From Sipunculus nudus (Eukaryota > Annelida > Sipuncula > Golfingiida > Sipunculidae), in assembly GCA_026874595.1 (NCBI GenBank), contig CM049309.1, forward strand, positions 39,013,079 to 39,077,078: a stretch of DNA of 64,000 nucleotides, written 5' to 3'. A model generated the notes under the pieces. It was not told where the DNA came from. It worked only from the letters and a program-made list of their open reading frames with translations, and ran no database searches. The translations under genes and the position numbers were made by a program. Within the stretch, counting starts at the first letter, position 1, and each line of letters begins with the position of its first letter. This document shows positions 4,559 through 38,479 of this stretch, piece by piece.

Positions 4559-7500
4559 GTAGGTCACTTGCAAGTTTAGAACTCATTAACATTGATCCTT
4601 ATGTTAAAAATTATGTTTGCATGTTCTGACCAATCTGATCCTCAGCTTAACCTTCAGAACTAAAGATATTCAGACCACAGCTGAATCAAATTTATCCGTT
4701 AAACTGTAAGACAGTTTCTGTAAGGGGGAAAAGATATTTGACTCTGGTCCACAATGTGAAACAAATTATTTGAAAAAAAAATGTTGAGACTTATAATTTA
4801 AAATTCTAAATCAAACCAAAACATTTCTAGCGGGGAGTTGTTGCATTGTCTGTTTATTGTCCCCTGCTTCCTTGGAACAGGGGATTTTGATTTCAGTTTG
4901 TTAGTCTGTCTGTCCATCTGTCAGGTTTTAGTTTCTGTGTGATAAATTTCCTAGATATTATCCGATTTCATTCAAATTTAGGTCAGTGATTGCTCTCATG
5001 CATACTTTGGTTGGAATTGGTTTTGGAGTGTCTTTTTATTTATCACCAGCTCTAAAACAAACAAAAATTTTCCCTTTGGTTCACAATTCATAACCAAATT
5101 TATGACATGTAGAGACATCTTCAGGGGACAAAGAAAACTTAAACACAGGCACTATGAAATGTCGAGACATCTTCAGGGGAAAATAAAAACTAAAACATGT
5201 TGAGATAGCAAAAAGGGGACAACTAGAGGCTAAAGCGGGGACATAAATTCCACAAATTTTGATTAGTTACTCTGCATACAGACTTACAACTTCCGCAATA
5301 ACTTACCGGGGCTTTGATGGATTTTCACGAAACTCACCATAACTACTTACCAATAGATTATCTCACCCGAGTTATTAATATGTTCAACATCCACACATAT
5401 ATTATTAATAAGGTCACAAGTCACTAGGCTACTTTGTGGTGTCGCCCAAAAATTATGAAGAATATGAAGGATTTTGAAAAATAAATTTATCTCTTAAATC
5501 ATTTTAGCTTAAATAAGTTTATCTTTGACTTGCCCTACTTGAAATTTTACTTGCCTGCCTAAAACCAGTAATTGAATTGTTCTGTTGCTTGATTTTTGCA
5601 TATTAGACAACAGACATGTTCAAATGTTTGTTATTCATATTTCTCTTTAGTATTACCTATTTGTACAGGTAAATGGGTAGGTAATTTAAGATAAAGAAGT
5701 ATTATCAATATGATTTCATTTCTCCATAAAAAAAAATGGCTAACTGAAGATCAGTTTAGATTCAGGCCTTACGGTGAAGATTTATGTTAAACCCAATCAT
5801 CCAAGTAGGAATGCACTTTAGGTTGCCCTACCACCATTTTCTGGAACTTTACTTTCCTCAGGCAAGCTGTTAATCATAATGGTCAAGCCCTGAATTTTTT
5901 TAGTGAAAAATATGTGTTTGTTTGTTTCAGATCCCAAGGGGAGTTATTTGTGACCGTGCTGCACCTATTAATAAAACTGTACCCAAATTACCTGATCAGT
6001 TTCGCACAGATATTGAAGTCATACACCAAGACAGTAAAAAGGTTGCAATCATAAAGGTGAGCTTCATAGATGTACACTATACAGGTAGTAAATAATGCAA
6101 TTATCACACCAGATATATATCAGAATAATTCTTCAATATGAGTACTGTTGTAAATTCTGTTCTATTGACAATACTAAAGTTTGGGATATGTATATCTTTA
6201 TTAATTTCAAATTTAAAAAAAAAACATTAAAGGTGATGTACTACCCAGAACACTGTGGATTCATAGTAAGATGTTATTACATACTGTGGATGCCTTTTTG
6301 TTTGCGAGGGTTTTACTTTCACGATATTCGCGAATGGGATATAATCGCGAATATGAAACTCAAGTGCTCAAGTGCATTAGATCTGCCCAGTATTCAATAT
6401 TAAGGATACCTTTTTATTGCAAAACATAAATTTTTAGAAATTTAACCAGTTCTGCTACCTTAATGGTTATGTACTTCGATTTCATAAATCTGGTGCAATT
6501 GCGAAAATGAAACCCTCACAAAACTTTCAAAATGAAGAAATTAGGGAAATTTTGGGAATTTTTCGAATATCGAAGTCAACCAGAGTATACATGCATGATG
6601 TCATTACAGAGATACTATGACCATGCCAACCAGTTGTCTCGCAAAGATTTCACTCCTGACCCTCGGTACCATGCGTCATTCATCCAGCACCATGGATCAG
6701 ACCCTGTCAGGATGATCCACGATTATAACACAGGTCAGCTTATTTCAAAGTGCACTTGATGTTTTAATTCATTCATGCTGATTCTTTGGAATAGATCTTT
6801 GTCCTTTGTTGAAGTTTGTTCTTTGGTCTGTATTTAAAGGTTCAGCTTGATATCCAGATAATCTCATGGGATACCAGAAATTAGGAAATTGTTTATAATA
6901 TTTGCTAGCTATAGGCCCAGAGATATGATTATTAGCATGAATGAAAAATCAAATTTGCCACAGTGCTTAAGTTAGCTAAACAAACATGTTCCAATGTATT
7001 ATTAAACTGTAAATATGTGCCACATTAACACATAAATATCAAATCACCATGCACACTTGGAAGAAAATCATTTCAACAGTTCATTATTGCCAAATATACC
7101 TGCTACTGTAAAGTTCTCAACAGAATACGGCCTCATTAGCATACTCGCCCAGTTATGGCTCAGAATGTTTTGTCAATGATACACATGTACTGCTTATGCT
7201 AAAGTCCCTAACATAATACTCACCCAAATCTAGCTCAAATCTGCCCCAATCTCCTACCTTAAATGATAAAATTCATCCAAAAATCTTATATTACAATGTA
7301 TAAACATACAACAAAAAGTAAATGCTTGTATTTTTTTATTCTTTTTACAAAATATTTAGCATACTGATGAATGATAAAATGGTTAAGGATGTGCTCACGC
7401 CAGGCAGCAGCGGGCGGGTGCTACCGGCAGCTTTTCCTGTCGTCCAGCACATGACTTGAATGTTTCAATGCACGCCTGCCAGTATTTTTTAAGCTGTGAA

Positions 7501-10500
7501 AAAAATACACGTGTTTACGTATATATCTTGGGGTATTTTACATGTATTTTTATTCATGACCCCTGTCGGATATATCTGAAGGGTATATGTACCAAGCTAG
7601 AAGACATCCAGTGGGGCCCAAATCAATATTTAAATGGAGGTACTCTTTCACAATGTTCCGTATTAAGTTAATGTTATTGAATAAAATTTGCTACCAACAG
7701 TAATGAATGTAGGTGCAAGGGTAGTGCCACCTGGTGTCTGTCTAAAAGACTAACACTGATATTACAAACCAAGCGGATTGTGATTTGCTAGTGATGATAA
7801 GATAATCATATATTACAAATTATATACAATTATTATACAAAAATATACAAACACTGTTTTAGCTATAAATAGAAATTAGAATGACATTTGCAAGAAAATA
7901 CTGTGAATTTCAGAATGCAAACAACTTCCCGTAAATGCCCCTATTATCTCTCACTCTTAGTCATGTTTCACAGCACTCTGGATAAGATTCATAGTGATGC
8001 CCCAAATATAAGACGCAGGTGGAGTTCATACAAAATTCCCAAATTTATTTATGACGTGGTCCTAATACGATACACATTTTCTATTGAGAATTTTAAGGTA
8101 CTTTACTTTCTGGTGTCATGATATGTGTATAACGAAATCCAAAACTTAGTCTACAGTGCTGCTGAAACCAATCATGGCAGAATATTTTGTGAAATATTCT
8201 CATTGAAAACTCCTGTTCCTATAATTACAAGGAAGTACTTTAAACCTGCATTTGGATTTCAAATCAGGTGTTCTCATACTTAAATATTAATGTTAATTAG
8301 GGCCCAACTTAGAAAAAGTGGTGACCTATAGTGATCACCATGTCCGTCCTTCATGCCGTCCTTCTGCCCGTCATTGATGCTATCTTTCGTGCGCAGAGAA
8401 TACGATGGATCTTTCTCAAATCCACAGGGATGATTGGTGCTTAGTAGGGCTCTGTCCCTGTCGAATTTCAGACCCACCAAATATACAATATGGCTGCCAG
8501 AGCACAATCGATGATTTTGTTTCCTGCCTGATATCCCAAAGAGGATACAATGGATCTTTCTCAAATCGACAGGAGGGCTCTGTCCCTATTGAATTCCAGA
8601 CCAACAAAAAAATCAATATGGCTGCAAGAACACAATCAGTGATTTTCTTTTATACACTATATCCCAAAGAGAATACAGTTGATCGTTCTTAAATCCACAG
8701 GGATTATTGTTGCCAAGGATGGCTCCATTAAACCCACAAATAATCTACTATGGCTGCCAGAGCACAATGGATAATTTTCTTTAGTGTGTCATATCCCTAA
8801 GAGAATATGTTTCAGCTTTCACAGGTATGATTGAACAAGTTTCACTAGATACACCAATTCACTCTGTGGGGCCCTCTAAGGCCCATCATTTGATTACATC
8901 TGGTTTAGAAATAATATTGGCATAACAATATGCAAATACAGTAATTTCTTATGCTAATTAGGCCATATACACACTAGCAAATAAGCCAGATGGTGAATCA
9001 GTTTTCTCTGTCTGTATTTGGACCTTAGGGGGAGCTCCTTTGAGTGACCTTGCAAACTCAGGGTGCGGCTATAAATAGATGTGCGGCGATAAAAACAGGA
9101 CTTACTATAACCCACTAATCCACATCAGTTTGGTTTACTGTAGTCTGCTTGAAAGGCAGTCTACAACAGTCCTGTTTTCTTTAGTCCTGTTCACAGTAAA
9201 CCAGTTTCTAGTATGTACAGGCAAATTCGCTTCTAGTCAGAATGAGTCTAGTTTCACAGAACTGCCTGGACTACTACTGTTGCATGAGGGAGTGTTTTTT
9301 TCAGTTGCAGAGTCAGATGATGATCCAAGTGCAGACAGCAAACTCACAATATGTTTAATAAATTGGTTTAGGCTTTCGTAAAGTGAAATACAGAGCAGAT
9401 GAAAATGGACTGCTTGGAGACTATAGTAAACTTGTGTATTATAATCCAGTTAAGATGTGAACAAAATGCGGATACGGTCTTAAACGCACAATTGTCATTA
9501 GATAAAGTGTCATAACAGCTCTACTTATAACCTTGTGTGTTTCATGTTGCTCCATTATGCCTTCTTTTCAGGTGTGCAGTACCTGGTTCGTCAGACTGAC
9601 AGCCGCTGTGAAATAAATAGAATCCCCAACAGTGCAGACGATGGCACTACTAAAGACCCAGACCACCCAGACCACATCTACATGGAGCACGGAAATCAGC
9701 TCATGAACCTTGATCAGGTGCACTTCCAGTATCAGGGACAAGTCAGTATTCTTTTTTTTCTTACAAGGCAGACTGATTCATACATATAATACATTTGAAG
9801 AAATACTTTCATATTTAAAAGGATAAAAAAAAAGCCTTTCTCCCATACTTGTTATTGATGTTTTTAACAGATTTTCTGCGTATAATTTGTTGTTTAGAGT
9901 GATATCCTTTTGAATCTTCAAAGAAACAGCATACTAAGTACTATTTCGTTCTTTTACCTTAATGTTGCCTAAGCAGTTGCATTATATCTGAACTTTTTTA
10001 GATGTTTCATAGAAAAAAACAAGAACAGTGAGATTGAAGTTTCCATAGGGTCAAAGTTCATATGGCCACAAAGATATTTAACAAATATACCTTTTATACA
10101 AAGTAATTTGCTTATTGTACTCAATAAACTTATTCCTGTGTTAATGAGAGGAGGAGAACCAAATGTGATGCCAGGGTCAGAGTGATAATGTGGCTAGGGA
10201 TTGAAGCATTCTCAAGCTGAGAGCCGTAAGTCATTTGATGAGTGGTTATTCATATAAACAGTGTGGATCTCTATCTCTCAGAGACTGGTGAGAAAGATTC
10301 CATGTGACGTGTGGGCGGGACAGAGGAATGACTACCCACAGCAGGGAGACATGTCTACTATAGAGCTGTATCATGCTCAGGTAAAGACCCTAAAGACACA
10401 GTGTATACTAGGGCTGGGTATCAGTCAGCCTGTTCAAGTACAATCCCAGGACCATTCTAAAAAATTTGTCCGTCATCGTTCACATGTGCGAGCTTGTCAT

Positions 10501-16500: not shown

Positions 16501-19500
16501 ACGAGTTTAACAATGATCCCTCCATGATAAAGGCCTTTGACATTCTGGATTGCTCTAAGAAAGAAGAGAGACTACACCTGGTGTTTCAGCTTGATGGTGA
16601 GAAAAGTTGAATAAACTAATTATTTTCTTAGCCTTAGTGACTCCAAAGTGACTCTAGCATGACATCAGAGTGACTCCAAACTTTTTATTGCCATATACAA
16701 CACACAATAGAATTACAAGAGAGACCATTCGCACATAATTTTAATTGTTTATGTATTATGGGGACTGTGTATGGTGGGATTGGTGGGAGGTTGGCATGGC
16801 TTAAAAGGCCTAAATTTGACAGCAGTGGGCTACCAAAGGTAGATATCCCAAAAAATTAATAAGGGCAACAGAAAAAGGAGAAGGTTGTTTTCAACATAGT
16901 AAAAAAATATTAAAATCCCAACAGCATTTCTAATAATCCTGCTCTTTTACAACAGAGATTGAACAAAATATGCTGATTCAGCATTGTAACATTTAAAATA
17001 TATGATCGAACCTTGCACATGGGGAAAAAAAAGTTTTCCATGCATACTTTCTTATTGGACTGCAAACTGTACTGATATAAGAGCTCAGACCTTTTTATTG
17101 AAAAATATGAACAAGAGCACTGGTAAAATAGAATTTAGATTATTTATTAGTGTCATCTCCCCTGAATTGTTATACAGTGAGCAGTTCTTTAAAACCAAAA
17201 AGAAACAAAAATAAAAACAAAAAAAAGTAAATTTACAGGCCTGAAATAGTTTCAGGTTTACTCAATAGGTGTCACCATGGGTCCTATGACAGCAAGGAAG
17301 GACTTAACTCTAAACATTGGAAGTTAAATCTTACTGGCCTGCTGTATCTTAACATTGGTATCAGGTGCCTGTTTAGACGAATTCTTATGGACATATTTTA
17401 AAACTTTCAGCTTTTATGAACAATTTATTGACAATGTAAGTTCATATGTTGAAGCAAGCGCAGTCATTGGTTTTTATATTACAGGGAAATACTCCACGAT
17501 AGTGAAGAACCGAGAGCAGAATCTGGTTCCCTCCATACGCCGGGCACTGTCACAGACAGCCAATATTACAGGCATCCGAATGACCGACTTTAGTGTGAGT
17601 AATGTTAGGCCAAAAAAATAAAAGGTATGGTTCTCAGGCACCACCAGCATCAATTTAAAACCCCCTGCATCAAAAATTTTTATTTTGATTTTCAATAGAA
17701 ACTTACCAATTTTGAGCTCCAGCCACTCGGACATTTCTTTCAAGATGATAAAATCATACAATTTTGATAAAACTTCCTTTGTAATGTAGTGCTTTTACTT
17801 TTTTAGCAAAATAAATCTGTTATTATCATGCTTTTCTCTTATCATTTGACATTTTTATCGAAACATACAAAAAAATAAAAAATGAAAAAAACGCCTACCC
17901 GCATTGTTTTATGTAAAAAAGTGCCTGAGAGCCAAACCTTCTTTTTTTTGGCCTCACACATTGTTTTATGTTAAAACCAGGGGCCTGTTGCAATAACGTT
18001 ATACTGGACTAAGCTTTCAAAGTTTTTAAGACCCAGAACATTATTAAGGTTGTGTTGCAATGACATAATACTTGAATAAAGCCCAGTAATAGGCCTAAAT
18101 GCAGTTGTTACAAGTGTGACATCATAATGGTTACTATAGTGATGCACAGATGCCACTGGGCTTAAGTCACTTGTCATCTTAGTGCAACACACCCCGGCAT
18201 ATTTCTGAAAATACCAAAAGATTTTAGCCCTTGGGTGTGTGCAGTAAGGTGACTTATGTCATGTTTGTGATGTAAGTCCAGGGAACATCTGTGTATCATG
18301 GTGGTAGAAATTATGATGTCACATTTATAACAATAGTATTTATGCCTGCTACTTTGGAAGTCCAGTATATATTGTTATTGCAGCAAGCCAATGATAACAT
18401 TCTCAATCTTGAACCTTGAAAGCTTATAGACTTCGAATAGAAATAGAAAAAAAGGATGACATTGTGAGTGATCATACTAAGGTTACTACAGTTTTCTTAT
18501 TACACAAATCTTGTATGACAAACTTTTTTTAAATCAACATTTTTTATGAAGTTTACAGTTATCCAAAATTCTGAGAAAGAATCAAACACAGAAAAGCACA
18601 AAATTCAGCTTTAATGTAATTTCCTTATTGGTAAATTTATTATTAGATATAGAGAATGTTAAATGGTGACATTGATGGGTAATTTATCATTGCGTGTAGA
18701 TAATAAAAACTTATGTGTCAGCATTAATTTTCTATTTCAGTTTGCAGTCACCAATGAAAACTATGTTGATGTTTGGTTCACATTACTGCCAAAGCCTGAC
18801 ATCAAGGGTAAGACCATAATTATCTGAGCATCATTTTTTTCATAAACTGCCTGAGTTTAATCATATATATTGCACTTTCTTCTTGTCACAAGTTGTATAT
18901 ATAAACTAGAAATCAGAATTCTAAAGGAACATGAGCCTCCCAAAACCGTCTTTGCATACACTTGTTCAGCCCTTATTCCCAGGTTCATTCTTGCACAAGT
19001 GACCGTACATTTATAAATATCCCTAGATGACGTTCCAGAATCCAGATCATGTGAAAGATCCACACCAAAATCTAATGGCTTCTTCATTGGCAAATTCCCT
19101 AAATGTCTTAAAAATATTTATGAGATTTTATCCATGATTGCACAAGTTTTGTTGTGAACAAGCACACAAACGCACACACAGATTGGGATGAACACATCGC
19201 CTCCTGGCTCAGGCAGTGATATTTACACTAAAATAGGAAACCAAACGGACCATGTGCATGCAGCTTAAATGCAAAAATGTAACTTAGTAGTAGAATCTTA
19301 AAGGTGCCCATTCACCTACCTTTGAAAAAGAATTTATGTGATTTCTGGCTTCTTCTGTGTATATATTATATTAATGATCAAGGGGTAATTTGGGTTATGA
19401 AAAGTTCTTATAAGGCCTTTGTGAAGAACTTGTTTATCAACTTTTTTATCAACAGCATGTTTGTAAACACAACAATGTTGACAAACTGTTGCACTTGTTG

Positions 19501-22500
19501 AATTTGTTTGGATTATTTCAGTGGGCCTCCTCATATTAAAACATGTTGATATTAACAAAACAAGCACCCTGTGTGCAGTGATATTCACATTTTCTGGCCT
19601 ATTGTTTATAAAAGCTCTAAGGGATTACCTTTAGTTTATAAAGGTCAGATAGGTGATTGGGCCCCTTTATATATAATTAAGAATTTACCATCCTCCATCA
19701 AATAAATGAAGTGGTGATTCTTGTTGGTGAAGTTTCACTTTTTCACATTGATTTAATAACGCAATAAATCTGCCTGTGATAGATTTACCTTATTCTGCCT
19801 TGTATCCTGACATTAAAATGGTGACGTGAAATGCCTTGAGGGTCCTTGAGGTTACCAAAGTTCTGATCGGTGGGTGTTTGGTCCTTTTGTAGATCAAATA
19901 TGTATCAGCTTGTTATACACCTAACATATGACGGGAGTATTATGGTATACCCACTGTCTGTCAGTCCATTAACTTTAAGTGTCACTGCAATAACTTACTG
20001 GGGCTTCGATGGATTTTCACCAAACTCACCATAACTCATTACCAAAAGATTATCTCGCCGAAGTTTGATTATGGGCCAAATCCACGCATATTTAATAAGG
20101 TCATGGGTCACTAGGCTACTTTGTAGTGTTGCCACAATAATTTAAGTAGAATATGAAGGATTTTGATAAACTCATCAGAAATGTTAATCAATAAAATATA
20201 TTGCCTAAGTTTGATTTCCACCAAAATCTACCCATATATACTGCAGTCAGAGGTCACCGCACTTTGGTGAATAAACAAAAATCTTATGGATTTTTCATGA
20301 AACTAATTATACATATTTACCAATAGAGTTTCCAACCTCAGTCAAATTCCTCAGCAGATTTCATGCATATTTAATGAGGTCAGATGTCACAGGACAAAAG
20401 ATGGGTGCATTACGCATGTTTGCGGTGCTCTTGTATTCTTTTTCTATCTTTTCATCATCAGGGTGTGCACATGGTATTGGCCATTTCAACACAGGCCATC
20501 AGTCTTCCTCACTGTGAATTTTGAGGCTAATCTTGTCTATAGTCCATTTCACCACCTGCTGTCCACCTGTTTTTATGCCCCCGCCACAAAGTGGCCGGGG
20601 CATATAGTTTTACCCATGTCCGTCATTCCGTCCTTTCGTCATTCCGAAATCAAACAGTTGTACGGACTTTTTTTTTGCAATGCATGCAGATATTGGCCTG
20701 ATTTTTTGTGTGTGGGCAGATATAGACCAGTTACAGATGGAGTTCGCGTTTCGTCCCGGTTGACCTACTTTTGACCGTTTTACGGCTCCTAAACTTAGAA
20801 AATTTCATGAAAAATAGAAATTTCATGACAAAATCACATGTACGGACTTTTTTTCGCAATGCCTGCAGATATTGGCCTGATTTTTGGTGTGTAGGCAGAT
20901 AATGACCAGTTACACATCATGTTCCCGTTTTGTCCCAGTTGACCTACTTTTGACTGTTTTACGGCTCCTAAACTTAGAAAATTTCATGAAAAATAGAAAT
21001 TTTCATGACAAATACACATGTACGGACTTTTTTTCGCAATGCCTGCAGATATTGGCCTGATTTTTTGTGTGTGGGCAGATAATGACCAGTTACAGATCGA
21101 GTTCACGTTTCGTCCCGGTTGACCTACTTTTGAACGTTTTACGCCTCCTTAACTTAGAAAATTTCATGAAAAATAGAAATATTCATGACAGATACACATT
21201 TACGGACTTTTTTTTCGCAATGCATGCATATATTGGCCTGATTTTTGGTGTGTTGGCAGATATTGACCAGTTACAGATAGAGTTCGTGTTTCGTCCCAGT
21301 TAACCTACTTTTGATTGTTTTACGGCTCCTGAACATAGAAACTTTCATGTAAAATATAAATTTTCATGACAAATACACTTGTACAGACTTTTCTTCGCAA
21401 TACCTGCAGATATTGGCCTGATTTTTGGTGTGTGGGCAGATAATGACCAGTTACAGATCGAGTTCACGTTTTGTCCCAGTTAATCTACTTTTGACCAGTT
21501 GACGGTGCTCTAACATAGAAAATTTCATAAAAAAGTGCACATGTATGGACTTTTTTTCGCAGTGCCTGCAGATACTGGCCTGATTTTTGGTGTGTAGGCA
21601 GATAATGACCAGTTACAGATCGAGTTCACGTTTTGTCCCAGTTGACCTACTTTTGACCATTTGACTGCTCCTGAACATAGAAAGTTTCATGAAAAATAGA
21701 AATTTTCATAACAAATCCATATGTACTGACTTTTTTACCTCAATGCCTGCAGATACCACCCTGATTTTTTATGTGTGGGCAGATAATGACAGTTACAGAT
21801 GGAGTTCGCGTTTCGTCCCGGTTGACCTACTTTTGATTGTTTTACGGCTCCTAAACATAGAAAATTTCATGAAAGACAGAAATTTTTATGGAAAATGCAC
21901 ATGTATGGACTTTTTTTCACAATGCCTGCATATACTGGCATGATTTTTGGTGTGTTGCTTGATAATGACCCGTTACAGAGCGAGTTTGCATTTTGCCCTT
22001 GTTGACCTACTTTTGACCATACAACACCTCCTGAACTTAAAAAAAATTTCAAAATTTTACAAATGTTTCTTATTTGCCCCAGGTGGGGCATTCGTGTTGT
22101 TCCGACACATCTAGTTTGTAGATGATTTACTTAAAAGTTTATATTTTTCAATAATTTCCAAGAAAAAAACATATGGAAGGACAACCTAACAGGGCAATTT
22201 AGAATTTTACAATAAATCTCCCGTGTATGTTTCACAACATTTTTGTCTCTTTATCATATCTTTGTTTTAGCTGGTTGTATTTTTTAGAGTGTTTACATGA
22301 GTTCATCCAATCAGCAGCTGTCAGTTGAGGCTGTTTTTGCATGTCACCAATGACCTTGACCGCCATAAGTGGGTCTGATGTGTTGTAAAATGTAGACTGA
22401 TTTCTCATATTTTCAGAAAATTATGTTACTCAAATATGGTATAAGGTAGGAATTTCTGTAATCCTCTCCTCTACACTATAATTGTTTCCCTTGAAATGTA

Positions 22501-25500
22501 CCTAATAAAAATTTTCACAGCAAAAAACAGGTGGACATGAGGGGATGAAATGGACTATAGATAATGTTGAGTTGTGTAACTCTCCTGATATCCTATCTCC
22601 TCCTCAGCACTCTCAATTATTACTCCTTCATCAGGGATGAAGTATTTTGTTTTGATTGTTGGTTAATTTGTTTTTATCTGGTTGCCACTTAGCTTGAACA
22701 GTTATAAACCAGTTTTCATGAAATCATGTGGAACACCATATGGTTTTAGTTTAAAGGATTCAGTATCCAATGTGAGATATGGTTATTAATTTATCCTTGT
22801 TTAGGGCCAGCTCCATTCATTGTGTATTAGGTGCCCCTGTATTCTTCACCTTTGTGATCAAGCATGGTGTTGGTGAACTGTGACACATTTTTCTGTGTAA
22901 CACACAGCAATATTTGATTTTGATCTGGGCAGAGGTATTTATGTCGTCTTTGACTACATTTCTAGAATGTTTGTTTGTTTACTTTATATTCTATTCATGG
23001 TAATTGGCTTTGTTGTTTTAATATTCTAGTATTCATTTTATGATTCATTAATGACCTATTAAGGTCAAGCAAATGTATTCCAAATCTCATTATATTATCA
23101 TATAACATAATTGGTTATGAAAAAAGTATTAATATAGATTTTACATAAAATGAGCCCATTTTTTCTATCTATTTTTTCCACTAAAAACATGAGGTTTGTG
23201 TGATTTGTTCAAAAACTATTGGCACATCTATGAGCACTGTGAACTCGGCAGTGATGTCACACACAGGGAAATCCCCTGTGCCTAAAAATATAGATCTGGG
23301 TGAAAGCACAGTAATTCTGCCACTGTCATTCCCAAATTTTCAGCAGAATAAAACAACATGCATTACTAGATCTAAATGGTTGATAAAATTGTCCATGATG
23401 TCACGTGTACCAGCCAATCAAATCTGGGATCTTTTCACATTAACCTCTACATGTTATGTTTGCAGTACTATGTTATGTTTATATTATTATTATTATTATT
23501 ATTTAGATACACAGGAGTGGATAGTAGAGGTAGACTCAGAGGAAGCATACAAGAGGCTGAAATCCAGCATGAATGAAGAGGGGACCAAAATAGACATCCA
23601 CTATCAAAACTTCAGAGAGGTAATATACTCTAAACATGCTTCATACTCACTGATGCATACTCTAACATACTGAAGATGACTTAATTTCTGCAGGCCAAAA
23701 TATTGTAGTCTGCGTATTTAATTGTGAGTGTAAATTTACCTTTAATTCATAGATTATTCATTAAAGAAGGGAAGATGGAGTTGAAAAAAATGTTGTCTTT
23801 ACAGGACTTCACATGTCACTAATTGATCACTAATTGTCATGATTTTCATGTTAAGAACAACAGACCCAAAAATATCAGTGTGATACTCAGCAGGGCAAAA
23901 TCTTAACCATTGGACTTTCATAAGATGTTCAAACTTGATTATTACTAGACAGGCTAATACATTATCTGTTTGTCATACATTCTAAGATTAGGTCACTTTG
24001 ACCTATTTTATGCTCAGCTGACTGTTAGTCATCTGAGCTATAGCGATCACTCTTTGTCCGTCGTCCGTCCGGCCATCCAGCTATCTGGCTGTCTGTCTGT
24101 TAACAAGGCACAAATAGTAACCACTGGACCTGGAATCTTCTACCTTTACATCCAGAGAGGTCCATGAAAAATCTCCTTGGAAACCTGGAATCAGGTCTCT
24201 GTTACCCATATTCTTCAAGCTATGGGGCTCCAAAGTACCCCCCAGAATAATGAAAAATTTGATACAAAAGCTCAAGTATCTGAACAACTAATGCATTGAT
24301 CACCATGATTCTTAGCATGGATATTGATTATGGAGTGTTTCATCAGTTTCTGCAGACTGGTGGTACCACCTATATTTTATTCAATTATCCGAATTTTTTC
24401 TCTATTTTTGAGATCTTTAAGGTTGCTGTCATCTGTTAAAGTTGCACAAATTGTTACAACTGGACCTAGAATCTTCATTCTTGTAATGCAAGGATGCCAA
24501 AGAAAAGTGTCTGTGGAAACCTGAAATTAGGTCTCTGTTACCCATATCCTTCAAGCTATAGGACTCCGAAGTATCTCTCAGAGTAATGGAAAATTTGATA
24601 CAAAAGCTGAATTATCTAAATAACTAATGCAGAGATCACCATGATTCTTTGCATGGATATTGACCATTAAGTGTTTTTATTAGTTTCTGCAGACTGGTGG
24701 AGCCACCTGTATTTTTATTAAATTTACGCATATTTTCTCTATTTTTGAGATATTTAAATACAGACACAATCTTGGCCTGTTGGTTAATCTGTTTCATGCT
24801 TCAGTTGAATGGGTATATACTACCATTCAGATGATAAAATTTCCTTTTGCGAATCTCTTCCCAGTCAGCTGAGCGTCATGACCCATGGGTCACTTGTTAT
24901 GTGCTGTGACTTGTACTAGCTAAGCATCATGGCCACTGGGCTACTTGTTTCCTTTTAGACTTATGCTTTTCAATAAAGTAAAACATGACAGTACCAGAAT
25001 TCTGTACATAGCAGATTTGTATTTGTTGGAATAATTCAGTTTTCCTGTGTGTCAACTATAAAAGGCATTTTCTGTATCACTTTTATTAGATTTGTTTTTG
25101 GCAAACTATCATGAACAATATAGTGCAGTGTAAATGTAAGATCCCTGGGTCTCTTGTTATTAATTTATGACACATACAGATTACTGTTACCTTCAGAAAG
25201 TAGCAGTTGTGAAAGGAAGTCTGACCCGAGGGAGAGAGGTTCTGGATCCAAGGCGGCACAAAGGAGACTGCACTGTGATACAAGGCTACACCTCAGGTAG
25301 GCTAGCTTGTATTGTGATACAAGGCTACACCTCAGGTAGGCTAGCTTGTCCTGTGATACAAGGCTACACCTCAGGTAGGCTAGCTTGTCCTTTGATACAA
25401 GGCTATACTGCAGGTAGGCTAGCTTGCACTGTGATACAAGGCTACACCTCAGATAGGCTAGCTTGTCCTGTGATAGAAGGCTACACCTCAGGTAGGCTAG

Positions 25501-28500
25501 CTTTTCCTGTGATACAAGCCTACACTGCAAGTAGGCTAGCTTGCACTGTGATACAAGGCTACACCTCAGGTAGGCTAGCTTTTCCTGTGATACAAGCCTA
25601 CACCTCAGGTAGGCTAGCTTGCACTGTGATACAAGGCTACACCTCAGGTAGGCTAGCTTGTCCTGTGATACAAGGCTACACCTCAGGTAGGCTAGCTTGT
25701 CCTGTGATACAAGGCTACACCTCAGGTAGGCTAGCTTGTCCTGTGATACAAGGCTACACCTCAGGTAGGCTAGCTTGTCCTGTGATACAAGGCTACACCT
25801 CAGGTAGGCTAGCTTGTCCTTTGGTACAAGGCTACACTGCAGGTAGGCTAGCTTGTCCTAGGATACACCTATCTCAGCTGTCAGGTAGCCGGTTTCGTGT
25901 TGGCCGCAAACCATTCTACCAGGACTGATGGTTGTAACGATCACTCGTTTGGTCAAGGTGTGTTTTGATCCAGCGTATAAATTAATCATCAATGGATTGG
26001 CATTTGAGTATTGTTCCCTGGCCGTTTTCCTCTGTAATTAATTAAAATATTTTGTTAAGGTGAGATGCCTCTGTCTTTCGTGGGCACCTTAGTTTGTATC
26101 TGACTAGCATTCTTATTACATGACATGATATCATGCAGCATCAAAATCAGACTTGAGCTTGTTTGCAGTACAATATTTTTTAAGATACAGATATGCATTT
26201 ATCATAATATATAAACCGCTGAATAGTTCAAAATGGGTGTCCGTGACTAATCAAACCCGTGTACCATTCCTGGTACGCATGTGCGCTGTGTGCAATTCAC
26301 GCAGGATATTTAACAATAAAGATAAAAAATCAAGCAAATTCTACTGATATTAATTATGATTAATATAACATGTTACTTCATGTATTTTTTGGGGGTCCAG
26401 GGAAGCAATAAACATCAACGCCATTACACACTTTTTGCATCAAGTATGCACGGTTGTTTGGTGGAACAACGGTAACATAGTTGAAATGATCATCTTAGTT
26501 AAGCTCGATCAAGTGCAGTTAGCTTTTGGATGGGTGACCACACGCACAAAAGTGTCAGATCGACAACACGGGAGCCAGGGCTATTACTGATCGTACATTT
26601 TTTAACGCGCCTTTACTTTCCTATATTTATTCAGTATTTTGCAAATCAAAGTTATGCAGTTATAATAGCCAGTTATTTTTGATAAAGTCTTCTATATTAC
26701 TTACAGCTGCTTGTCCTTCTGTCCGCCGATATTGCCACCTGGTGGGTAAACTTGAAGAGAACTAGTAGTAATTGAGTTGCCATGTTTCGTCATACCCAGG
26801 CTACATGTAAAGTAGTAATCATTTTGTAATGTGACTGAGCTCAGTTTGATAAATCATTTGCAGACTCCATATAATCCATGTGACGGTAGGAAGCCTGTTT
26901 GAAGGAAGTAATGTAAAGCTAACAAATCAAACTTAAATACCCATATTACCTCTCAATCCATATGAGCAAACAAGTGTCAGAGGGGCTTGGTGTCTGATCT
27001 GGAGAGGGTTATCAAACCAGCTGCCTCTAAAATCTCAACCACTGCAAATTCAGCAGGAAGATAATTTTCAAATATTTAATAAATATATAAATAAATAAAT
27101 AATTTAAAACTATATTTACTCATTTTTACAGTTTATTTTTCGGAATTCCAAGATCGTGATTATTTCTTTCTTTCTGAATTGATTGAGAATGTACGGTACC
27201 AAGAGTGAGTGATATTAGGGAAGTTATGGGAAGTTGTTTGCACTCTGAAATTTACCTATTTCTTACTAAAATCATTCTGATTTCTATATAAAAGGCTAAA
27301 ATTTATTTTTAAACTACTTTAACAGTGTTCTAGTTGGAATTTGTAAAATATATGATTATCGTAGGCCTATTATCACCAGCCAATCACATACCCCTCGGTG
27401 TGTCATATGATTTGTGTCAGCAGTTCAGGGTAAGTCTATTAAACAGACACAAGGTGGCGATACTTTAAGGCTACATTCACTACTTTTAGTTGCCCATTTT
27501 ATTCATTAACTTTAACTGAATATGGCACATTATGAAAGAGTGCCTCCAATTAAATATTCATTCGGGCCTCACACATTGGATGTCTTCTAGCTTGGCATTC
27601 ATAAACATCACATATATCTGATAGGGGTCATGAATAGTGATACAGGTAAAATACTGCAAGATATATATGTACACATGTATTTTTTTCACAGCTAAAAAAT
27701 ATATGAATACATGGTGGTCTAATTTTTGGATAAATTCCATCATATAAGGTAGGAGCTAGTTGGGGGTGGGTTTGAGCTTAATTTAGGTGTGTTAGGAACT
27801 TTAGGGGAACTAGTATGTGTTCATCGATGCAGGCGCAGATCCAGAGGGGGGACCCGTTGAACCCTCCTTGCAAAAATTCCTGCATCTGCGTCTGCAATGA
27901 CTTAACATTCTGAGCAAAAGTGGGGTGCGTATTCTAATGAGGTAGCATATTCTTTTAGGCACTTTACAGTAAACCTTAGCGGTAACTAATGAATTTTGGT
28001 AAAGATGTAAATAAAGAATACTTGAATTTTTTCTTAAGTATGAAATACTATTCCTTTTTGTGGGGTACCCTTTTGATTATTTGCATGGTGAGTTCATTCT
28101 TGTCTGTGATACACTCTGTGTGCCACCCTGGGCCAGGCAGCTTTGGTTCTGTTAATTAATTTGCCACTTTCCTCTTGGTTCTGTCATGCTCCACAGTCCC
28201 CTAGTTATGTTATTGCCATATCACAAATTGCAATCAGCTCCCATTGTGAGGATTTGTTTTACTGACTTAGGTGAACTCCGGCATGGGCTAATGTTTCCTT
28301 TATCAGATTCAAACTCGTACATATTTTTGTGTAGCCAGGACTTTCCTCTGTAGTCTGTTTCATGAATGGTTGCCAACTTAAATTTTCAGGATATTTTCTA
28401 TATATTTGAAGATCAATTCCTTAAAGGTAAGCCATAAGATGAAATGAGGCATAAGCCTATTTAACCAAAATGAAACCAAAACCATTCCTTGCACAATATT

Positions 28501-29005
28501 TTAGTAATTCTGTGAAATCATTATCTGAGAAAACAGTATTTTTTACAACATCTCAACCCCTCAGATGAAGTAAATGGCACATGATCAGATAAAATATGTT
28601 AAAAAATTTTGATAGGTTGTTTAGTGTCATAAATATTCTAAAAAAATGTAATTGTCACAGTGAGGATGGTACCCCATGGCAGAAACTAGTTTACTTGGCC
28701 CCAGGGTTGATTAAGAACCATAGGGTTGCAGAATATAAATGTTGGATTTTGTCATGCAGTTTTTCATCTCATATTAAGCCTTTAGTCCTTATGCAACTTT
28801 GGTCACACTTTGTTTGATCATTTTTAAAAATTTGAAAATGGTGTGATGTGTTGCTTGCATATTTTAGAACTATTTATTTATTCTTTCAGGTTCCATGGGA
28901 GGCCTGGGCTTTGCGATGTTGCTTATTGGTATCATCTTTGGGTTTGTTTCGGCTTGGTGTCTGTGGCGGCGTAAACGTGGCATTCCATACAGTGTACACC
29001 ACTGA
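4452..29005 (+). CDS. Gene 1: metazoan LolA-like, type I membrane protein (3' twelve exons)
   Basis: Twelve exons (4452-4558, 5931-6056, 6610-6733, 9572-9741, 10282-10380, 13192-13272, 16464-16596, 17485-17594, 18741-18807, 23507-23619, 25197-25296, 28890-29005) join with matching phases and GT-AG borders into ~447 residues ending in a stop. Seen: a long soluble part with scattered Cys, the segments IHDYNTG, KIPCDVWAGQ and HEYYYHIYEFNN, then a Gly-rich hydrophobic span (GLGFAMLLIGIIFGFVSAW), a WRRKR stop-transfer patch and about eight tail residues. From memory of the family, the order EYYD / IHDYNTG / CDVW / YYHIY matches uncharacterised metazoan proteins with LolA-like domains. Bacterial LolA carries lipoproteins, but no such role is established here. 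The signal peptide and first exons are not in view. Function unknown; lipid or glycolipid binding at a membrane is only a guess. Two junction-derived tandem arrays lie within the gene. Confidence 0.75.
4559..5930. repeat. Intron with two repeat fragments
   Basis: At 4855-5225 a sequence opens with an imperfect palindrome (GTCCCCTGCTTCC...GGAACAGGGGAT) followed by a GTCTGTCTGTCCATCTGTC head, and repeats a TGTnGAGA(C/T)A...GGGGACAA module several times. At 5260-5465 is one copy of a family headed by GGGGCTTTGATGGATTTTCAC, also present at 19920-20425 and inverted at 42330-42900. The remainder is AT-rich and unremarkable. Confidence 0.6.
5931..6056 (+). CDS. Gene 1, exon 2 seen
   Basis: Acceptor TTTGTTTCAG, donor AAG|GTGAGC, 42 whole codons (phase 0 to 0). 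Encodes IPRGVICDRAAPINK... VPKLPDQFRTDIEVIHQ...KVAIIK, with one Cys and an N-glycosylation site (NKT). The FRTDIEVI and KVAIIK strands start the LolA-like fold that continues in the next exon. Confidence 0.75.
6290..6530. mobile_element. TIR element (MITE-like) in intron
   Basis: Opens with TTTGCGAGGGTTTTACTTTC and closes with the imperfect inverse GCGAAAATGAAACCCTCAC. It also holds an internal palindrome around ATTCGCGAAT...ATCGCGAATAT. No coding capacity. Lies about 80 bp upstream of the exon at 6610. Confidence 0.55.
6610..6733 (+). CDS. Gene 1, exon 3 seen
   Basis: Acceptor ATGTCATTACAG, donor ACAG|GTCAGC, 41 codons plus one base. Encodes RYYDHANQLSRKDFTPDPRY...DPVRMIHDYNTG. The YYD and IHDYNTG segments are the most recognisable part of the metazoan LolA-like family. 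A TIR element ends about 80 bp upstream, in the preceding intron. Confidence 0.8.
7095..7800. repeat. Dispersed element, copy 1 (inverted partner at 27350-27980)
   Basis: Shares, in reverse orientation with 27350-27980, a series of collinear blocks: CCTCATTAGCATACTC, TCTCCTACCTTA, a GTATTTTTT...AGCTGTGAAAAAAATAC block, TTCATGACCCCTGTCGGATAT and CAAGCTAGAAGACATCCA. A short GC-rich patch (7385-7450) lies within. No coding sequence seen. Confidence 0.65.
8310..8830. repeat. Tandem dispersed repeat, ~140-bp units
   Basis: Four degenerate units begin near 8397, 8541, 8671 and 8801 with GA(G)AATACnnTGGATCTTTCTC and contain ATATGGCTGCCAGAGCACAA. A related three-unit copy lies at 11927-12330. The head at 8318-8375 carries a GTGACCTATAGTGATCACC palindrome and a GTCCGTCCTTC run. 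Open frames here on both strands are chance products of the repeat. Confidence 0.65.
8937..9260. repeat. Dispersed element with inverted partner at 38480-38690
   Basis: CACTAATCCACATCAGTTTG, GTTTACTGTAGTC, ACAGTAAACCAGT and CTCTGTCTGTATTTGG recur in inverse order at 38480-38690. Internally the element folds on itself (AGTCCTGTT...AACAGGACT-like arms). The rest of this intron (6734-9571) shows nothing else. Confidence 0.5.
9572..9741 (+). CDS. Gene 1, exon 4 seen
   Basis: Acceptor CTTCTTTTCAG, donor CAA|GTCAGT, 170 nt, phase 1 in and 0 out. Encodes GVQYLVRQTDSRCEINRI... then an acidic/His-rich stretch (KDPDHPDHIYMEHGNQ) and LMNLDQVHFQYQGQ. The Cys in SRCEI probably pairs with a later Cys such as that in IPCDVW (inference). 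Confidence 0.8.
10282..10380 (+). CDS. Gene 1, exon 5 seen
   Basis: Acceptor CTATCTCTCAG, donor CAG|GTAAAG, 33 codons, phase 0 to 0. Encodes RLVRKIPCDVWAGQRNDY...MSTIELYHAQ. The R-x-V-R-x-I-P-C-D-V-W segment is a family hallmark and precedes a strand ending ELYHAQ. Confidence 0.8.
10381..13191. repeat. Intron: repeat copy 11927-12330, G tract
   Basis: Only two things stand out. A G tract lies at 11609-11622. Three units of the ~140-bp family described at 8310-8830 lie at about 11927-12330. Nothing else is recognisable in this intron; an open frame at 12217-12489 is repeat-derived. Confidence 0.5.
13192..13272 (+). CDS. Gene 1, exon 6 seen
   Basis: Acceptor GTGTTTTTTTAG, donor AAG|GTATGT, 27 codons, phase 0 to 0. 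Encodes EDWLSEGGKEGTPLQP...GMWIRSKWK. The next intron holds the 76-bp junction array. Confidence 0.75.
13785..16463 (+). repeat. 76-bp tandem array built from an intron-exon junction (~35 copies)
   Basis: The unit is TTCTGTTACATCTACAG followed by 51 nt (AATGATACAGCACCACATGA ... AAGTTTAACAAT) and then GTTTATAA or ATTTATAA. The array runs without gaps into the real exon at 16464, whose acceptor and first 51 nt are the same sequence. (16464-13802) equals 35 x 76 plus 2; the extra two bases are an indel near 16350. Each unit thus contains an apparent 3' splice site, and its 17 exon codons read NDTAPHEYYYHIYKFNN against NETTPHEYYYHIYEFNN in the exon. Reading on from any copy in exon phase reaches a TGA at the next unit's ACAGAATGA. 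Confidence 0.95.
15161..15920 (+). repeat. Higher-order repeat: two 380-bp (5 x 76) blocks inside the array
   Basis: Unit variants (ACAACCACATCTTC, CATACAGC with ACTACCAC, ACAACCTCATCTTC, CATACAGC, then CTACGAG) follow in the same order in 15161-15540 and 15541-15920. The two blocks look identical base for base where compared, so a five-unit segment was copied recently. Confidence 0.85.
16464..16596 (+). CDS. Gene 1, exon 7 seen; its first 51 nt seeded the upstream array
   Basis: Acceptor GGTACATCTACAG, donor GATG|GTGAGA, 44 codons plus one base. Encodes NETTPHEYYYHIYEFNN, then DPSMIKAFDILDCSKKEERL...VFQLDG. The first 51 nt and the acceptor are the same sequence that is repeated about 35 times immediately upstream. 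The real exon is told apart because it alone continues with GATCCCTCC and an open frame to a good donor, while every array copy continues with (G/A)TTTATAATTC and an in-frame stop. Confidence 0.8.
16597..17484. other. Intron, nothing recognised
   Basis: AT-rich, with short A and T runs (for example AAAAAACAAAAAAAG near 17210). I see no repeat copy, RNA gene or coding sequence apart from the exon boundaries. Confidence 0.5.
17485..17594 (+). CDS. Gene 1, exon 8 seen
   Basis: Acceptor TTTTATATTACAG, donor AGT|GTGAGT, phase 1 in, 0 out. Encodes GKYSTIVKNREQNLVPSIRR... then ALSQTANITGIRMTDFS. The amphipathic NLVPSIRRALSQ helix followed by GIRMTDFS looks like the start of a second small alpha/beta (ferredoxin-like or SEA-like) module; this is inference. 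A short TIR element starts about 35 bp after the donor. Confidence 0.8.
17625..17945. mobile_element. Short TIR element next to an exon
   Basis: The ends are inverse of one another: AAGGTATGGTTCTCAGGCAC at the left and GTGCCTGAGAGCCAAACCTT at the right, about 320 bp apart, with AT-rich non-coding interior. The left end lies about 35 bp after the donor at 17595. Confidence 0.65.
17979..18197. mobile_element. Short TIR element, ~217 bp
   Basis: The left end CCAGGGGCCTGTTGCAATAA and right end (inverse) CCGGGGTGTGTTGCACTAAG pair imperfectly. GTTGCAATGACATAA and GTGACATCATAATGG inside resemble sub-terminal repeats. No coding capacity. Confidence 0.5.
18741..18807 (+). CDS. Gene 1, exon 9 seen
   Basis: Acceptor TTTTCTATTTCAG, donor AAGG|GTAAGA, 22 codons plus one base. 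Encodes FAVTNENYVDVWFTLLPKPDIK, a strand-rich segment that continues the module begun in the previous exon. Confidence 0.75.
19300..19670. mobile_element. TIR element family 'AAAGGGGCCCAATCACCT', copy 1
   Basis: Left end TTAAAGGTGCCCATTCACCTA, right end TAGGTGATTGGGCCCCTTTA, inverse of each other. Relatives lie at 49089-49905 (interrupted by a SINE) and 58721-59180. The interior is AT-rich with no transposase. Confidence 0.65.
19920..20425 (+). repeat. Dispersed family with ~125-bp internal units, copy B
   Basis: Begins near GACGGGAGTATTATGGTATA with a GTCTGTCAGTCC head, then repeats GGGGCTTCGATGGATTTTCA ... TTAATAAGGTCA ... ACTAGGCTACTTTGTAG about three times with decay, ending near a CATGTTTGCGGTGCTCTTG tail. 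Shares units with 5260-5465 and, inverted, 42330-42900. Confidence 0.7.
20537..22562. mobile_element. TIR element interrupted by a Helitron-like element
   Basis: CTATAGTCCATTTCACCACC...GTCCACCTGTTTTT at 20537-20574 is the inverse of AAAAAACAGGTGGACATGAG...GAAATGGACTATAG ending at 22562. Without the insert (20571-22115) the element is about 480 bp. A truncated relative of its right half lies inverted at 39083-39380, sharing CTCAACTGACAGCTGCTGAT and TATGGCGGTCAAGGTCATTG. No transposase frame. Confidence 0.65.
20571..22115 (+). mobile_element. Helitron-like (HINE-type) element with central ~181-bp satellite
   Basis: Starts with a hairpin TATGCCCCCGCCAC-AAA-GTGGCCGGGGCATA and ends with a hairpin GCCCCAGGTGGGGC followed within 25 bp by CATCTAG, resembling the CTRR end of Helitrons. 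Between them, about eight copies of a ~181-bp unit start with ACGGACTTTTTTTCGCAATG near 20662, 20842, 21023, 21203, 21384, 21547, 21727 and 21906. Bivalve pearl/CvE-type elements have this build (family knowledge). No Rep-helicase is present, so it is non-autonomous; short open frames inside are repeat artefacts. Confidence 0.6.
22563..23506. other. Intron remainder with (ATT)n next to the acceptor
   Basis: No repeat family recognised. TCACACACAGGGAAATCCCC near 23258 contains a small palindrome. An ATT microsatellite (23481-23503) immediately precedes the exon at 23507. Confidence 0.45.
23507..23619 (+). CDS. Gene 1, exon 10 seen
   Basis: Acceptor is an ATT-repeat tract ending TTATTTAG; donor GAG|GTAATA. 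Phase 1 in, 0 out. Encodes DTQEWIVEVDSEEAYKRLKS... then EEGTKIDIHYQNFRE, an acidic helix-strand segment. The (ATT)n microsatellite replaces an ordinary polypyrimidine tract just before the acceptor, so its length may affect splicing. Confidence 0.75.
24011..24898 (+). mobile_element. Complete copy of the GCTCAGCTGA...GGTCACTTGTT element
   Basis: Head GCTCAGCTGACTGTTAGTCA then CTTTGTCCGTCGTCCGTCC; tail AGCTGAGCGTCATGACCCAT and GGGTCACTTGTT. The interior is a direct duplication with ~335-bp period (ACTGGACCTGGAATCTTC near 24122 and ACTGGACCTAGAATCTTC near 24459). Tails of the same family occur at 2821-2853, 4339-4371 and inverted at 63905-63945. Non-coding; mechanism unknown. Confidence 0.65.
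25197..25296 (+). CDS. Gene 1, exon 11 seen, with tandem alternative donors
   Basis: Acceptor TTACCTTCAG. The shortest form ends at donor CTCAG|GTAGGC (25297), 33 codons plus one base. Encodes KVAVVKGSLTRGREVLDPRR... CTVIQGYTS. The same donor recurs every 39 nt to 25843 with the reading frame open throughout, so longer forms of this exon would add 13 residues per step. The end given here is the first donor; transcripts are needed to choose. Confidence 0.7.
25271..25858 (+). repeat. 39-bp in-frame tandem array built from an exon-intron junction
   Basis: Unit: GTAGGCTAGCTTGTCCTGTG then ATACAAGGCTACACCTCAG. Every unit ends in CTCAG (or CTGCAG) followed by GTAGGC, a plausible 5' splice site. GT lies at 25297, 25336, 25375, 25414, 25492, 25531, 25570 and every 39 nt to 25843; the copy at 25453 is AT. 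A further TCAG|GTAGCC lies at 25885, also a multiple of three away. Because 39 is 13 codons and no unit contains a stop in gene phase, the frame stays open from exon 25197 to a stop at 25926-25928, reading [GRLACPVIQGYTS]n. Confidence 0.95.
26464..26560 (+). ncRNA. 5S rRNA-derived sequence (pseudogene or 5S-headed SINE)
   Basis: AGTTAAGC (A box of the 5S internal promoter), then GCAGTTAGCTTTTGGATGGG and TGACC match the order and spacing of animal 5S rRNA (GGTTAGTACTTGGATGGG...GACC). TGATCATCTTAGTTAAGC matches the TGATCTCGGAAGCTAAGC region. The 5' quarter and the 3' closing stem are degraded. A T6 run (26598) could serve as a pol III stop. A single isolated copy; function not expected. Confidence 0.6.
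27350..27980. repeat. Dispersed element, copy 2 (inverse of 7095-7800)
   Basis: Contains the inverse of each block listed for 7095-7800 in the same relative order, for example GGATGTCTTCTAGCTTGG, ATATCTGATAGGGGTCATGA and TATTCTAATGAGGTAGCATA. Lies in the last intron of gene 1. The intron's other parts (25930-26450, 26600-27340, 27990-28889) show no further recognisable element. Confidence 0.65.
28890..29005 (+). CDS. Gene 1, last exon: transmembrane segment and stop
   Basis: Acceptor TTATTCTTTCAG; two bases complete the split codon, then SMGGLGFAMLLIGIIFGFVS, AWCLWRRKR, GIPYSVHH and TGA at 29003-29005. A ~20-residue hydrophobic span follows the Gly-rich start; Trp-Arg-Arg-Lys-Arg is a classic cytosolic boundary. 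The cytoplasmic tail is very short. An overlapping frame is open to 29060 but lacks a membrane span and does not match the phase of the preceding exon. Confidence 0.8.
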
Positions 29006-31300: not shown

Positions 31301-31317
31301 GTCTAAGTCACCTCCAG

Positions 31318-31785
31318 TGCTGCTTAAATCTGCGTTTCCATAAGTGTGAGAGCAAACTCAGAGGCGAACGCAAATATGAGTCGTGAGCCATTTGCGGGGT
31401 GCGTCTCCATGTAAGCAAGGCGACAAATGATTTCTAGTCATTTCTGCACAATTATATTACAGAAATTTAGAATCATTAGGTGAATTAATTTGAACTAATC
31501 ACAGTGAGTATTCTAGAATTTAAAGGCATGTTCCAATCTAGATAGATCTGAAAATAAGGTGTATGTTGCTTGAAGTATTTAAAGTTACTTTCCTTCTACG
31601 TCCTGCATTTCCATTGTCACACATTGCATACCATTGAAAAGTCATTGTGATAGAGAAGAAGCCATCAAGTAAAATCTCACTTGAGGTGACTCTCACCTAT
31701 GCGCATCTCAAAACTCTCCAGTGTTATTACCATAGAAGCAATTTTTATTGCTTAGCACATATGGAAACGCAGTTTAAAAGATAGT
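31318..31785. mobile_element. TIR element, ~465 bp
   Basis: CTTAAATCTGCGTTTCCATA at the left and TATGGAAACGCAGTTTAAAA at the right are inverse copies. GGTGCGTCTCCATGTAAGCA inside is a related sub-terminal motif. No coding capacity. Confidence 0.6.
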
Positions 31786-34600: not shown

Positions 34601-34614
34601 GGCACCACTGAGTG

Positions 34615-38470: not shown

Positions 38471-38479
38471 GCTGAAACT

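What the first reader, a model, noticed from the sequence alone, without database searches (positions are those of the whole stretch)
25197..25928. A 5' splice site amplified every 39 nt in frame, predicting a ladder of stalk lengths
The donor CTCAG|GTAGGC at the end of exon 25197-25296 recurs at 39-nt steps to 25843, with only the copy at 25453 mutated away from GT. The reading frame is open through all units. Because the next exon (28890) encodes the transmembrane span, use of donor n would insert n x 13 residues (GRLACPVIQGYTS, one Cys each) just outside the membrane. All isoforms remain in frame. This could be a spliced length dial for the juxtamembrane stalk, and unit-number polymorphism would change the maximum length. 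Preservation of frame and of 14 GTs across the array suggests recent growth or tolerance.
Basis: partly seen in the sequence, partly recalled or inferred. Interest (0 to 1): 0.88.

Follow-up and report, generated by a model that had tools for sequence, protein, structure and literature searches.

The report
Tandem copies of one splice donor
In an animal membrane-protein gene, a short DNA segment spanning the end of an exon has been copied about fifteen times in a row, leaving a row of near-identical splice donors that could give proteins with stalks of different length; nothing in the sequence shows that they are used, and similar repeat-borne splicing ladders are already known.

Summary
A 39-nt tandem array (25273-25867) starts inside the end of exon 25197-25296 and carries the exon's donor with it. 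Of 15 steps from 25297 to 25843, 14 have GT and 13 the full CAG|GTAGGC. A weaker GT lies at 25885 (+42 nt, in phase). Spliced in silico to the membrane exon at 28890, all 16 positions stay in frame.

The inference from 'preservation' fails. The 13 distinct unit variants are 10 missense, 3 synonymous and 0 stop, as expected without constraint. Donor columns are not less variable than the rest. The antisense frame is open too, and AlphaFold scores it higher.

Most likely this is a young minisatellite seeded across an exon-intron junction, with the first donor dominant and some stochastic leakage to later ones; a regulated length dial is unproven. The kind is known: human UBC gives a spliced ladder from AG|GT at each unit boundary (PMC10809524). 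Here the regular AGs look like poor acceptors, so this would be a donor-only ladder. No transcripts or relatives were available, and the own-genome search did not complete.

The parts
5931..6056 (+). candidate upstream exon of the same gene (126 nt), tentative
   Evidence: best-ranked exon candidate (acceptor 5.8, donor 6.7); ends in phase 0, so it does not join 9572 directly and an exon between is missing
9572..9741 (+). candidate upstream exon (170 nt), tentative
   Evidence: open frame after a pyrimidine-rich acceptor; donor CAA|GTCAGT read; joins in phase 0 to 10282
10282..10380 (+). candidate upstream exon (99 nt), tentative
   Evidence: exon candidate (acceptor 4.0, donor 3.9)
17485..17594 (+). 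exon of the host gene
   Evidence: acceptor 6.6, donor AGT|GTGAGT 2.6, phase-consistent
18741..18807 (+). exon of the host gene
   Evidence: acceptor 3.9, donor 4.7, phase-consistent
23507..23619 (+). exon of the host gene
   Evidence: acceptor 4.3, donor 2.35, phase-consistent
25197..25296 (+). exon whose last 28 nt match the CA-type repeat unit; ends in the first donor, phase 1
25273..25867 (+). 39-nt minisatellite spanning the exon-intron junction, ~15 copies; 8 unit types among 14 complete units
25297..25848 (+). serial donors: first intron bases at 25297+39k, k=0..14; 14 of 15 GT, 13 with CAG|GTAGGC
25885..25890 (+). additional weaker donor CAG|GTAGCC (score 0.57), 42 nt after the last regular one, in phase; its AG is the one fair acceptor of the array (2.07)
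25926..25928 (+). stop codon reached if no donor is used (form without the membrane exon)
   Evidence: AATAAA at 26315 downstream
28890..29005 (+). last coding exon: hydrophobic span, RRKR, short tail ending ...SVHH, stop
   Evidence: acceptor 9.21 (top 0.05%), phase 1 join; membrane span judged by eye

Best explanation
A 39-nt segment straddling an exon-intron junction (28 nt of exon end plus 11 nt of intron start) was tandemly amplified to about 15 copies by ordinary minisatellite growth, so the 5' splice site was copied with it. Thirteen of the 15 regular copies look like competent U1 sites; the regular copies look like poor 3' splice sites. The most likely behaviour (inferred, not shown) is that the first donor, 25297, is used for most transcripts. 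Reasons: it is transcribed first, it defines a short 100-nt exon, and it is predicted to be the most open donor in nascent RNA, because units pair with one another and cover later donors. Later donors would then be used stochastically at low level, adding n x 13 residues in frame before the membrane span. Shown: anatomy, frame, donor scores, neutral variation. Inferred: which donors are used, and that any longer protein is made.
For: Array begins inside the exon and includes its donor. 13 of 15 donors identical and strong. Four identical adjacent units 25648-25765 and a repeated two-unit pattern (the F-type units 25492 and 25570, 3 columns apart, are each followed by a CA-type unit) suggest recent growth by slippage or unequal exchange. 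Variation without coding or donor constraint. Acceptor scores of the 14 regular AGs -3.72 to -1.30, within the upper 28-51% of all AGs, against 9.21 for 28890. Predicted unpaired probability of internal donors 0.08, against 0.25 +/- 0.11 for arrays of shuffled units (10 of 160 shuffles as low). In nascent RNA the first donor is 0.64 and the sixth 0.09 open, a gap reached by 0 of 160 shuffles. Nascent values at all 16 positions: first 0.64, second 0.34, the other 14 between 0.01 and 0.20.
Against: No transcript was seen. With equal competing donors, the one nearest the 3' splice site is often preferred (recalled: Reed and Maniatis; Cunningham and Eperon), which would favour inclusion of most of the array; in DOK7 the intron-proximal donor is also preferred, though it is the stronger one there (PMC5585400, passages). 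The folding result depends on context. With the fold begun at 25197 the first donor is 0.14 to 0.36 open, and with pairs limited to 80 nt the seventh (25531, weak CAA donor) is more open than the first, 0.42-0.44 against 0.29-0.36. In a first control with 60 plainly shuffled units the real first donor (0.14) was not more open than the controls' (0.21). The nascent first-minus-sixth measure was chosen. The shuffled arrays lacked unit variants, and an array of 14 consensus units gives a nascent first donor of only 0.29, so its openness rests on the two-base variant of unit 1. The 23620 and 17595 donors score lower than the array's and are taken as real, so score does not decide. The splice matrices are human-like and recalled; the species is unknown.
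Confidence: 0.5

Rival explanations
1. True spliced ladder: many of the 13-15 donors are used at comparable rates, giving membrane proteins whose juxtamembrane stalk grows in 13-residue steps from 34 to 216 residues (counted from the exon start to the membrane exon; 230 if 25885 is used). It would be stochastic rather than regulated, as in human UBC.
For: 13 of 15 donors equal in score, all in frame. UBC gives an RT-PCR ladder of bands one repeat unit apart from AG|GT at each unit boundary, with no tissue or feedback regulation found (PMC10809524: abstract, passages and section 7).
Against: No transcripts; most internal donors predicted to be paired; UBC repeats also act as acceptors, whereas the 14 regular AGs here score poorly; no protein-level constraint on the repeat.
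Confidence: 0.25
2. Array wholly exonic: the last strong donor (25843, or 25885) is the main one, the exon is 646-688 nt, and the array codes a constant stalk of 14 x 13 residues; copy-number alleles, not splicing, change its length.
For: Frame open throughout; proximal donors often win among equals (recalled); GC of array 0.50 like the exon 0.52 and unlike the following intron 0.36, though the unit is itself mostly exon-derived.
Against: 12 upstream donors with the same 9-mer (13 if 25885 is used) would have to be ignored; missense variation unconstrained, Cys lost in 2 of 14 units.
Confidence: 0.15
3. [quoted passage not shown] A variant: any donor joins the fair acceptor at 25885.
For: AG|GT at 13 of the 15 regular boundaries. 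The AG before 25885 scores 2.07 as acceptor (top 8.75% of AGs), close to the exon's own acceptor at 25197 (2.97, top 6.03%). Known models (PMC10809524, PMC4974935, passages).
Against: The 14 regular AGs score -3.72 to -1.30 (upper 28-51% of all AGs); introns of 39 nt are very short, and larger ones would need the same weak acceptors. Joining to 25885 leads to the stop at 25928 unless the weak donor at 25885 (0.57) is then used.
Confidence: 0.05
4. Failure to use any donor gives a form without the membrane exon, ending ...GSRFRVGRKPFYQD at 25925 and polyadenylated after AATAAA at 26315; the donor array may act as a stack of U1 sites that suppresses this early poly(A) site.
For: Open frame to 25928 and AATAAA at 26315.
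Against: AATAAA and ATTAAA are common in this AT-rich DNA (15 of the two forms in 25197-30500); U1 suppression is recalled and untested here.
Confidence: 0.05

Closest known systems
Human polyubiquitin UBC (and VCX3A): tandem array of dual-specific AG|GT splice sites (PMC10809524; abstract, passages, section 7)
   Same: A splice signal at a fixed place in every in-frame tandem repeat; products (here only predicted) differ by whole units; the sites show little conservation or constraint; unit variants can tell which sites were used.
   Different: UBC sites act as both donor and acceptor inside the repeat and cut out whole units (228 nt); here the units are 39 nt, their regular AGs look like poor acceptors, and the presumed acceptor is a single strong one about 3 kb downstream.
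Internal tandem repeats at exon-intron boundaries in human segmental-duplication genes (De Grassi and Ciccarelli, PMC2812944; outline and passages)
   Same: Minisatellites of about 30-bp units, some sitting on an exon-intron boundary and altering splicing; often polymorphic.
   Different: Those repeats average 4 copies and the boundary cases were described as forming novel introns; here about 15 copies of the donor itself.
Tandem alternative 5' splice sites (PMC2423196; passages)
   Same: Competing adjacent donors of one exon.
   Different: That work treats a proximal and a distal site, with sites 4 nt apart prominent in the passages seen; here 14 GTs at 39-nt steps.
[quoted passage not shown] passages)
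   Same: Duplication of an AGGT-bearing segment multiplies splice signals; a 24-bp fission-yeast repeat with introns across several copies is cited there.
   Different: Needs one copy as donor and a later copy as acceptor; the acceptor side looks weak here, except at 25885.

Membership tests
UBC-type dual-specific splice-site array | AG|GT at every (or nearly every) unit boundary | tested here: met
   13 of 15 regular boundaries
UBC-type dual-specific splice-site array | unit length a multiple of 3 and frame open | tested here: met
   39 nt, open + frame
UBC-type dual-specific splice-site array | sites usable as 3' splice sites | tested here: inconclusive
   approximate matrix: 14 regular AGs -3.72 to -1.30 (upper 28-51% of all AGs); the extra one at 25885 scores 2.07 (top 8.75%); no functional test
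UBC-type dual-specific splice-site array | transcripts differing by whole units | not testable with these tools
   no transcript data; species unknown
Minisatellite at an exon-intron boundary | tandem array overlapping both the exon end and the intron start | tested here: met
   array 25273-25867 against exon end 25296, given the exon model
Minisatellite at an exon-intron boundary | copy-number polymorphism | not testable with these tools
   one haplotype; the own-genome search did not complete
Regulated stalk-length dial | selection on frame, residues or donors in the array | tested here: not met
   10 missense, 3 synonymous, 0 stop of 13 variants against 8.8, 3.6, 0.67 expected; donor columns 2 of 9 variable against 11 of 30; with so few variants, weak selection would not be seen
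Regulated stalk-length dial | next exon encodes a membrane span | tested here: inconclusive
   hydrophobic stretch followed by RRKR read by eye; no predictor run, no homologue found

The most novel reading that the evidence does not exclude
A donor-only splicing ladder: 13 or more equal 5' splice sites at 39-nt spacing compete for one distant acceptor, giving membrane proteins whose stalk is any multiple of 13 residues longer. The array's own RNA pairing would partly cover the later donors and so set the length distribution, and copy number would set the maximum. It would be a natural version of the duplicated-donor competition experiment.
Probability: 0.2. Interest if true: 0.65.

Novelty: new member of a known kind. 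Interest (0 to 1): 0.38.

Why it matters
If several donors are used, this is a ready-made test of how the spliceosome chooses among many identical 5' splice sites (first transcribed, nearest the acceptor, or most exposed), in one natural gene whose units partly carry their own sequence barcodes. If only one is used, it shows that a strong donor can be copied a dozen times without disturbing splicing. Either way the case is directly testable by RT-PCR. It is not evidence by itself of a new regulatory device.

Tried and rejected
Selection on the repeat: not supported; variants look neutral. Open frame as coding evidence: rejected; antisense open for 230 aa, 53% chance for a shuffled unit in a given frame, 94% chance of at least two of six frames open. 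Structure of the repeat: AlphaFold2 without alignment gave the sense product pLDDT 67.4 and the antisense product 81.1, all listed elements strands in both, so confidence here reflects repetition and not reality. Pfam on the array product listed DUF3378 (9.5e-07, 29.3 bits) and RMF (1.1e-06, 29 bits); both exceed their whole-protein cut-offs (27 and 27.9), but no single stretch passed, so I take them as summed repeat effects. Host-gene identity: Pfam on the spliced membrane-proximal part, on upstream exon peptides and on three-frame pieces (+ strand 1-3000, 3001-12998, 12901-13802, 16601-25198 and 29001-38998; - strand 25901-35898) gave no match reaching its curated cut-off; PDB gave three matches, best E 0.21. 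The other stretches were not scanned in this way. A resemblance of the upstream exon peptides to invertebrate proteins with a LolA-like ectodomain is from memory and untested. Exon candidates that ranked near the adopted ones but were not adopted: among others 13121-13272, 12239-12474, 1651-1733, 16388-16596. Stable local RNA structure: MFE of the unit and of five tandem units not lower than shuffles (z 0.93 and 0.06); only donor accessibility differed. Rfam: 0 matches in the window at gathering cut-offs. The viral and prokaryote collections (search for related loci and the like) were not searched, since the window looks like animal DNA. Literature: ten searches; others found nothing, and the prime sign in 5' blocked some phrases, so no statement of absence from print is made.
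Full report
What is there. The 39-nt array is real: 25273-25867, 15.3 copies, 91% matches, no indels. Its first copy lies in the proposed exon 25197-25296, whose last 28 nt match the CA-type unit. Counting first intron bases at 25297+39k for k=0..14, 14 of 15 are GT, 13 of 15 carry CAG|GTAGGC, 25531 carries CAA|GTAGGC and 25453 is AT. A degenerate last copy adds CAG|GTAGCC at 25885, 42 nt further. With an approximate human-like 9-mer matrix (frequencies recalled, not from a call) the 13 sites score 4.6, in the top 1.07% of 3566 + strand GTs, themselves included; 25531 scores 1.45 and 25885 scores 0.57. The gene's other donors score 2.61, 4.68 and 2.35.

Is the exon real? The chain 17485-17594, 18741-18807, 23507-23619, 25197-25296, 28890-29005 has AG and GT at each of its four junctions, and the joined frame runs without a stop to the TGA at 29003-29005. 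It reads ...HKGDCTVIQGYTS-G-SMGGLGFAMLLIGIIFGFVSAWCLWRRKRGIPYSVHH-stop. I picked these exons by eye from open frames and splice signals, so agreement in phase supports the chain but is not a blind test. The acceptor at 28890 is in the top 0.05% of 3680 AGs; the one at 25197 is modest, top 6.03%. Three candidate exons lie upstream (5931-6056, 9572-9741, 10282-10380). The first two do not join in phase, and I could not bridge 10380 to 17485, so the gene model is incomplete. The Pfam scans of the host peptides gave nothing at cut-off, and PDB nothing better than E 0.21. The protein database was switched off, and the own-genome search did not complete in eight tries. Species and gene identity are therefore open. 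That the window is animal DNA is inferred from its gene structure and from an SV2 luminal domain on the other strand.

Does the array show constraint? Among 14 complete units there are 8 types and 13 distinct variants. In the exon's frame 10 are missense, 3 synonymous, 0 stop. All 117 possible single changes split 79, 32, 6, so 13 random ones would give 8.8, 3.6, 0.67 (arithmetic mine). Donor columns vary in 2 of 9 and other columns in 11 of 30, Fisher p 0.69. The open frame is cheap: 53% for a shuffled unit in a given frame, and the opposite strand is open too. AlphaFold2 scored the antisense product higher than the sense product (81.1 against 67.4). Growth looks recent: units 25648-25765 are four identical copies, equal to the one at 25336, and the F-type units at 25492 and 25570 (3 columns apart) are each followed by a CA-type unit.

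Which donors would be used? All 16 positions lead in frame to the membrane exon, giving 34 to 230 residues from the exon start to the membrane exon (25453 is not a GT). Two considerations oppose each other. From recalled work, equal donors often compete in favour of the one nearest the 3' splice site. Against that, exon length (100 nt against 646) and order of transcription favour the first.

RNA folding adds a hint and no more. In the array with 200-nt flanks, internal donors are 0.08 unpaired, against 0.25 +/- 0.11 for arrays of dinucleotide-shuffled units that keep the donor 9-mer (10 of 160 as low). In nascent RNA the first donor is 0.64 and the sixth 0.09 unpaired, a gap that 0 of 160 shuffles reach. 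Across all 16 positions the nascent values are 0.64, 0.34, then 0.01-0.20; the gene's other three donors, folded in their surroundings, give 0.34, 0.38 and 0.52. Against this: the measure was chosen. The first donor is only 0.14-0.36 open when the fold starts at the exon, and with pairs limited to 80 nt the weak donor 25531 is more open than the first. In a control with 60 plain shuffles the real first donor (0.14) did not exceed the controls (0.21). An array of 14 consensus units gives a nascent first donor of 0.29, so the effect rests on the two-base variant of unit 1. Overall MFE is not unusual. I therefore lean, at about even odds, to a dominant first donor with leakage.

Could units splice to one another? 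AG|GT at each boundary is the signature of the dual-specific array in human UBC, where RT-PCR gave a ladder one ubiquitin unit apart and no regulation was found (PMC10809524; abstract, passages, section 7). Here the 14 regular AGs score -3.72 to -1.30 as acceptors, within the upper 28-51% of all AGs. The AG before 25885 is the exception at 2.07, top 8.75%, not far from the exon's own acceptor. Joining to it would run into the stop at 25928 unless the weak donor there is used next. I rate this reading at 5%. [quoted passage not shown] Boundary minisatellites in human duplicated genes were read as outline and passages (PMC2812944). Tandem 5' sites and two-donor competition were read in passages (PMC2423196, PMC5585400). 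PMC12457776 was seen as outline only.

Verdict. The functional story is possible but has no support beyond frame and donor strength, and its argument from preservation is not borne out. It is best filed as a junction-spanning minisatellite, a new member of a known kind, worth one RT-PCR.

Noticed in passing
45424-46029 (-): Exon-like frame matching the SV2A/B/C luminal domain (PF23894, 4.6e-12, above cut-off; pentapeptide-repeat families below theirs): an SV2-like transporter gene on the other strand.
   Followed up: no
46230-47327: 27-nt tandem array, 40.9 copies, beside the SV2-like exon, with long open frames on both strands.
   Followed up: no
13780-16515: 76-nt tandem array, 36 copies, 94% matches, in the gap between candidate exon 10282-10380 and exon 17485-17594, probably within the same gene.
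   Followed up: no
20659-22018: 180-nt tandem array, 7.7 copies, in the predicted intron between 18807 and 23507 of the same gene.
   Followed up: no
25929-26335: If no donor is used the frame stops at 25928, with AATAAA at 26315: a possible form without the membrane exon.
   Followed up: partly
5931-6056, 9572-9741, 10282-10380 (+): Upstream exon candidates whose joined peptide (...FQYQGQRLVRKIPCDVWAGQRNDYP...) reminds me, from memory only, of invertebrate LolA-like ectodomain proteins; Pfam gave no match at cut-off.
   Followed up: partly
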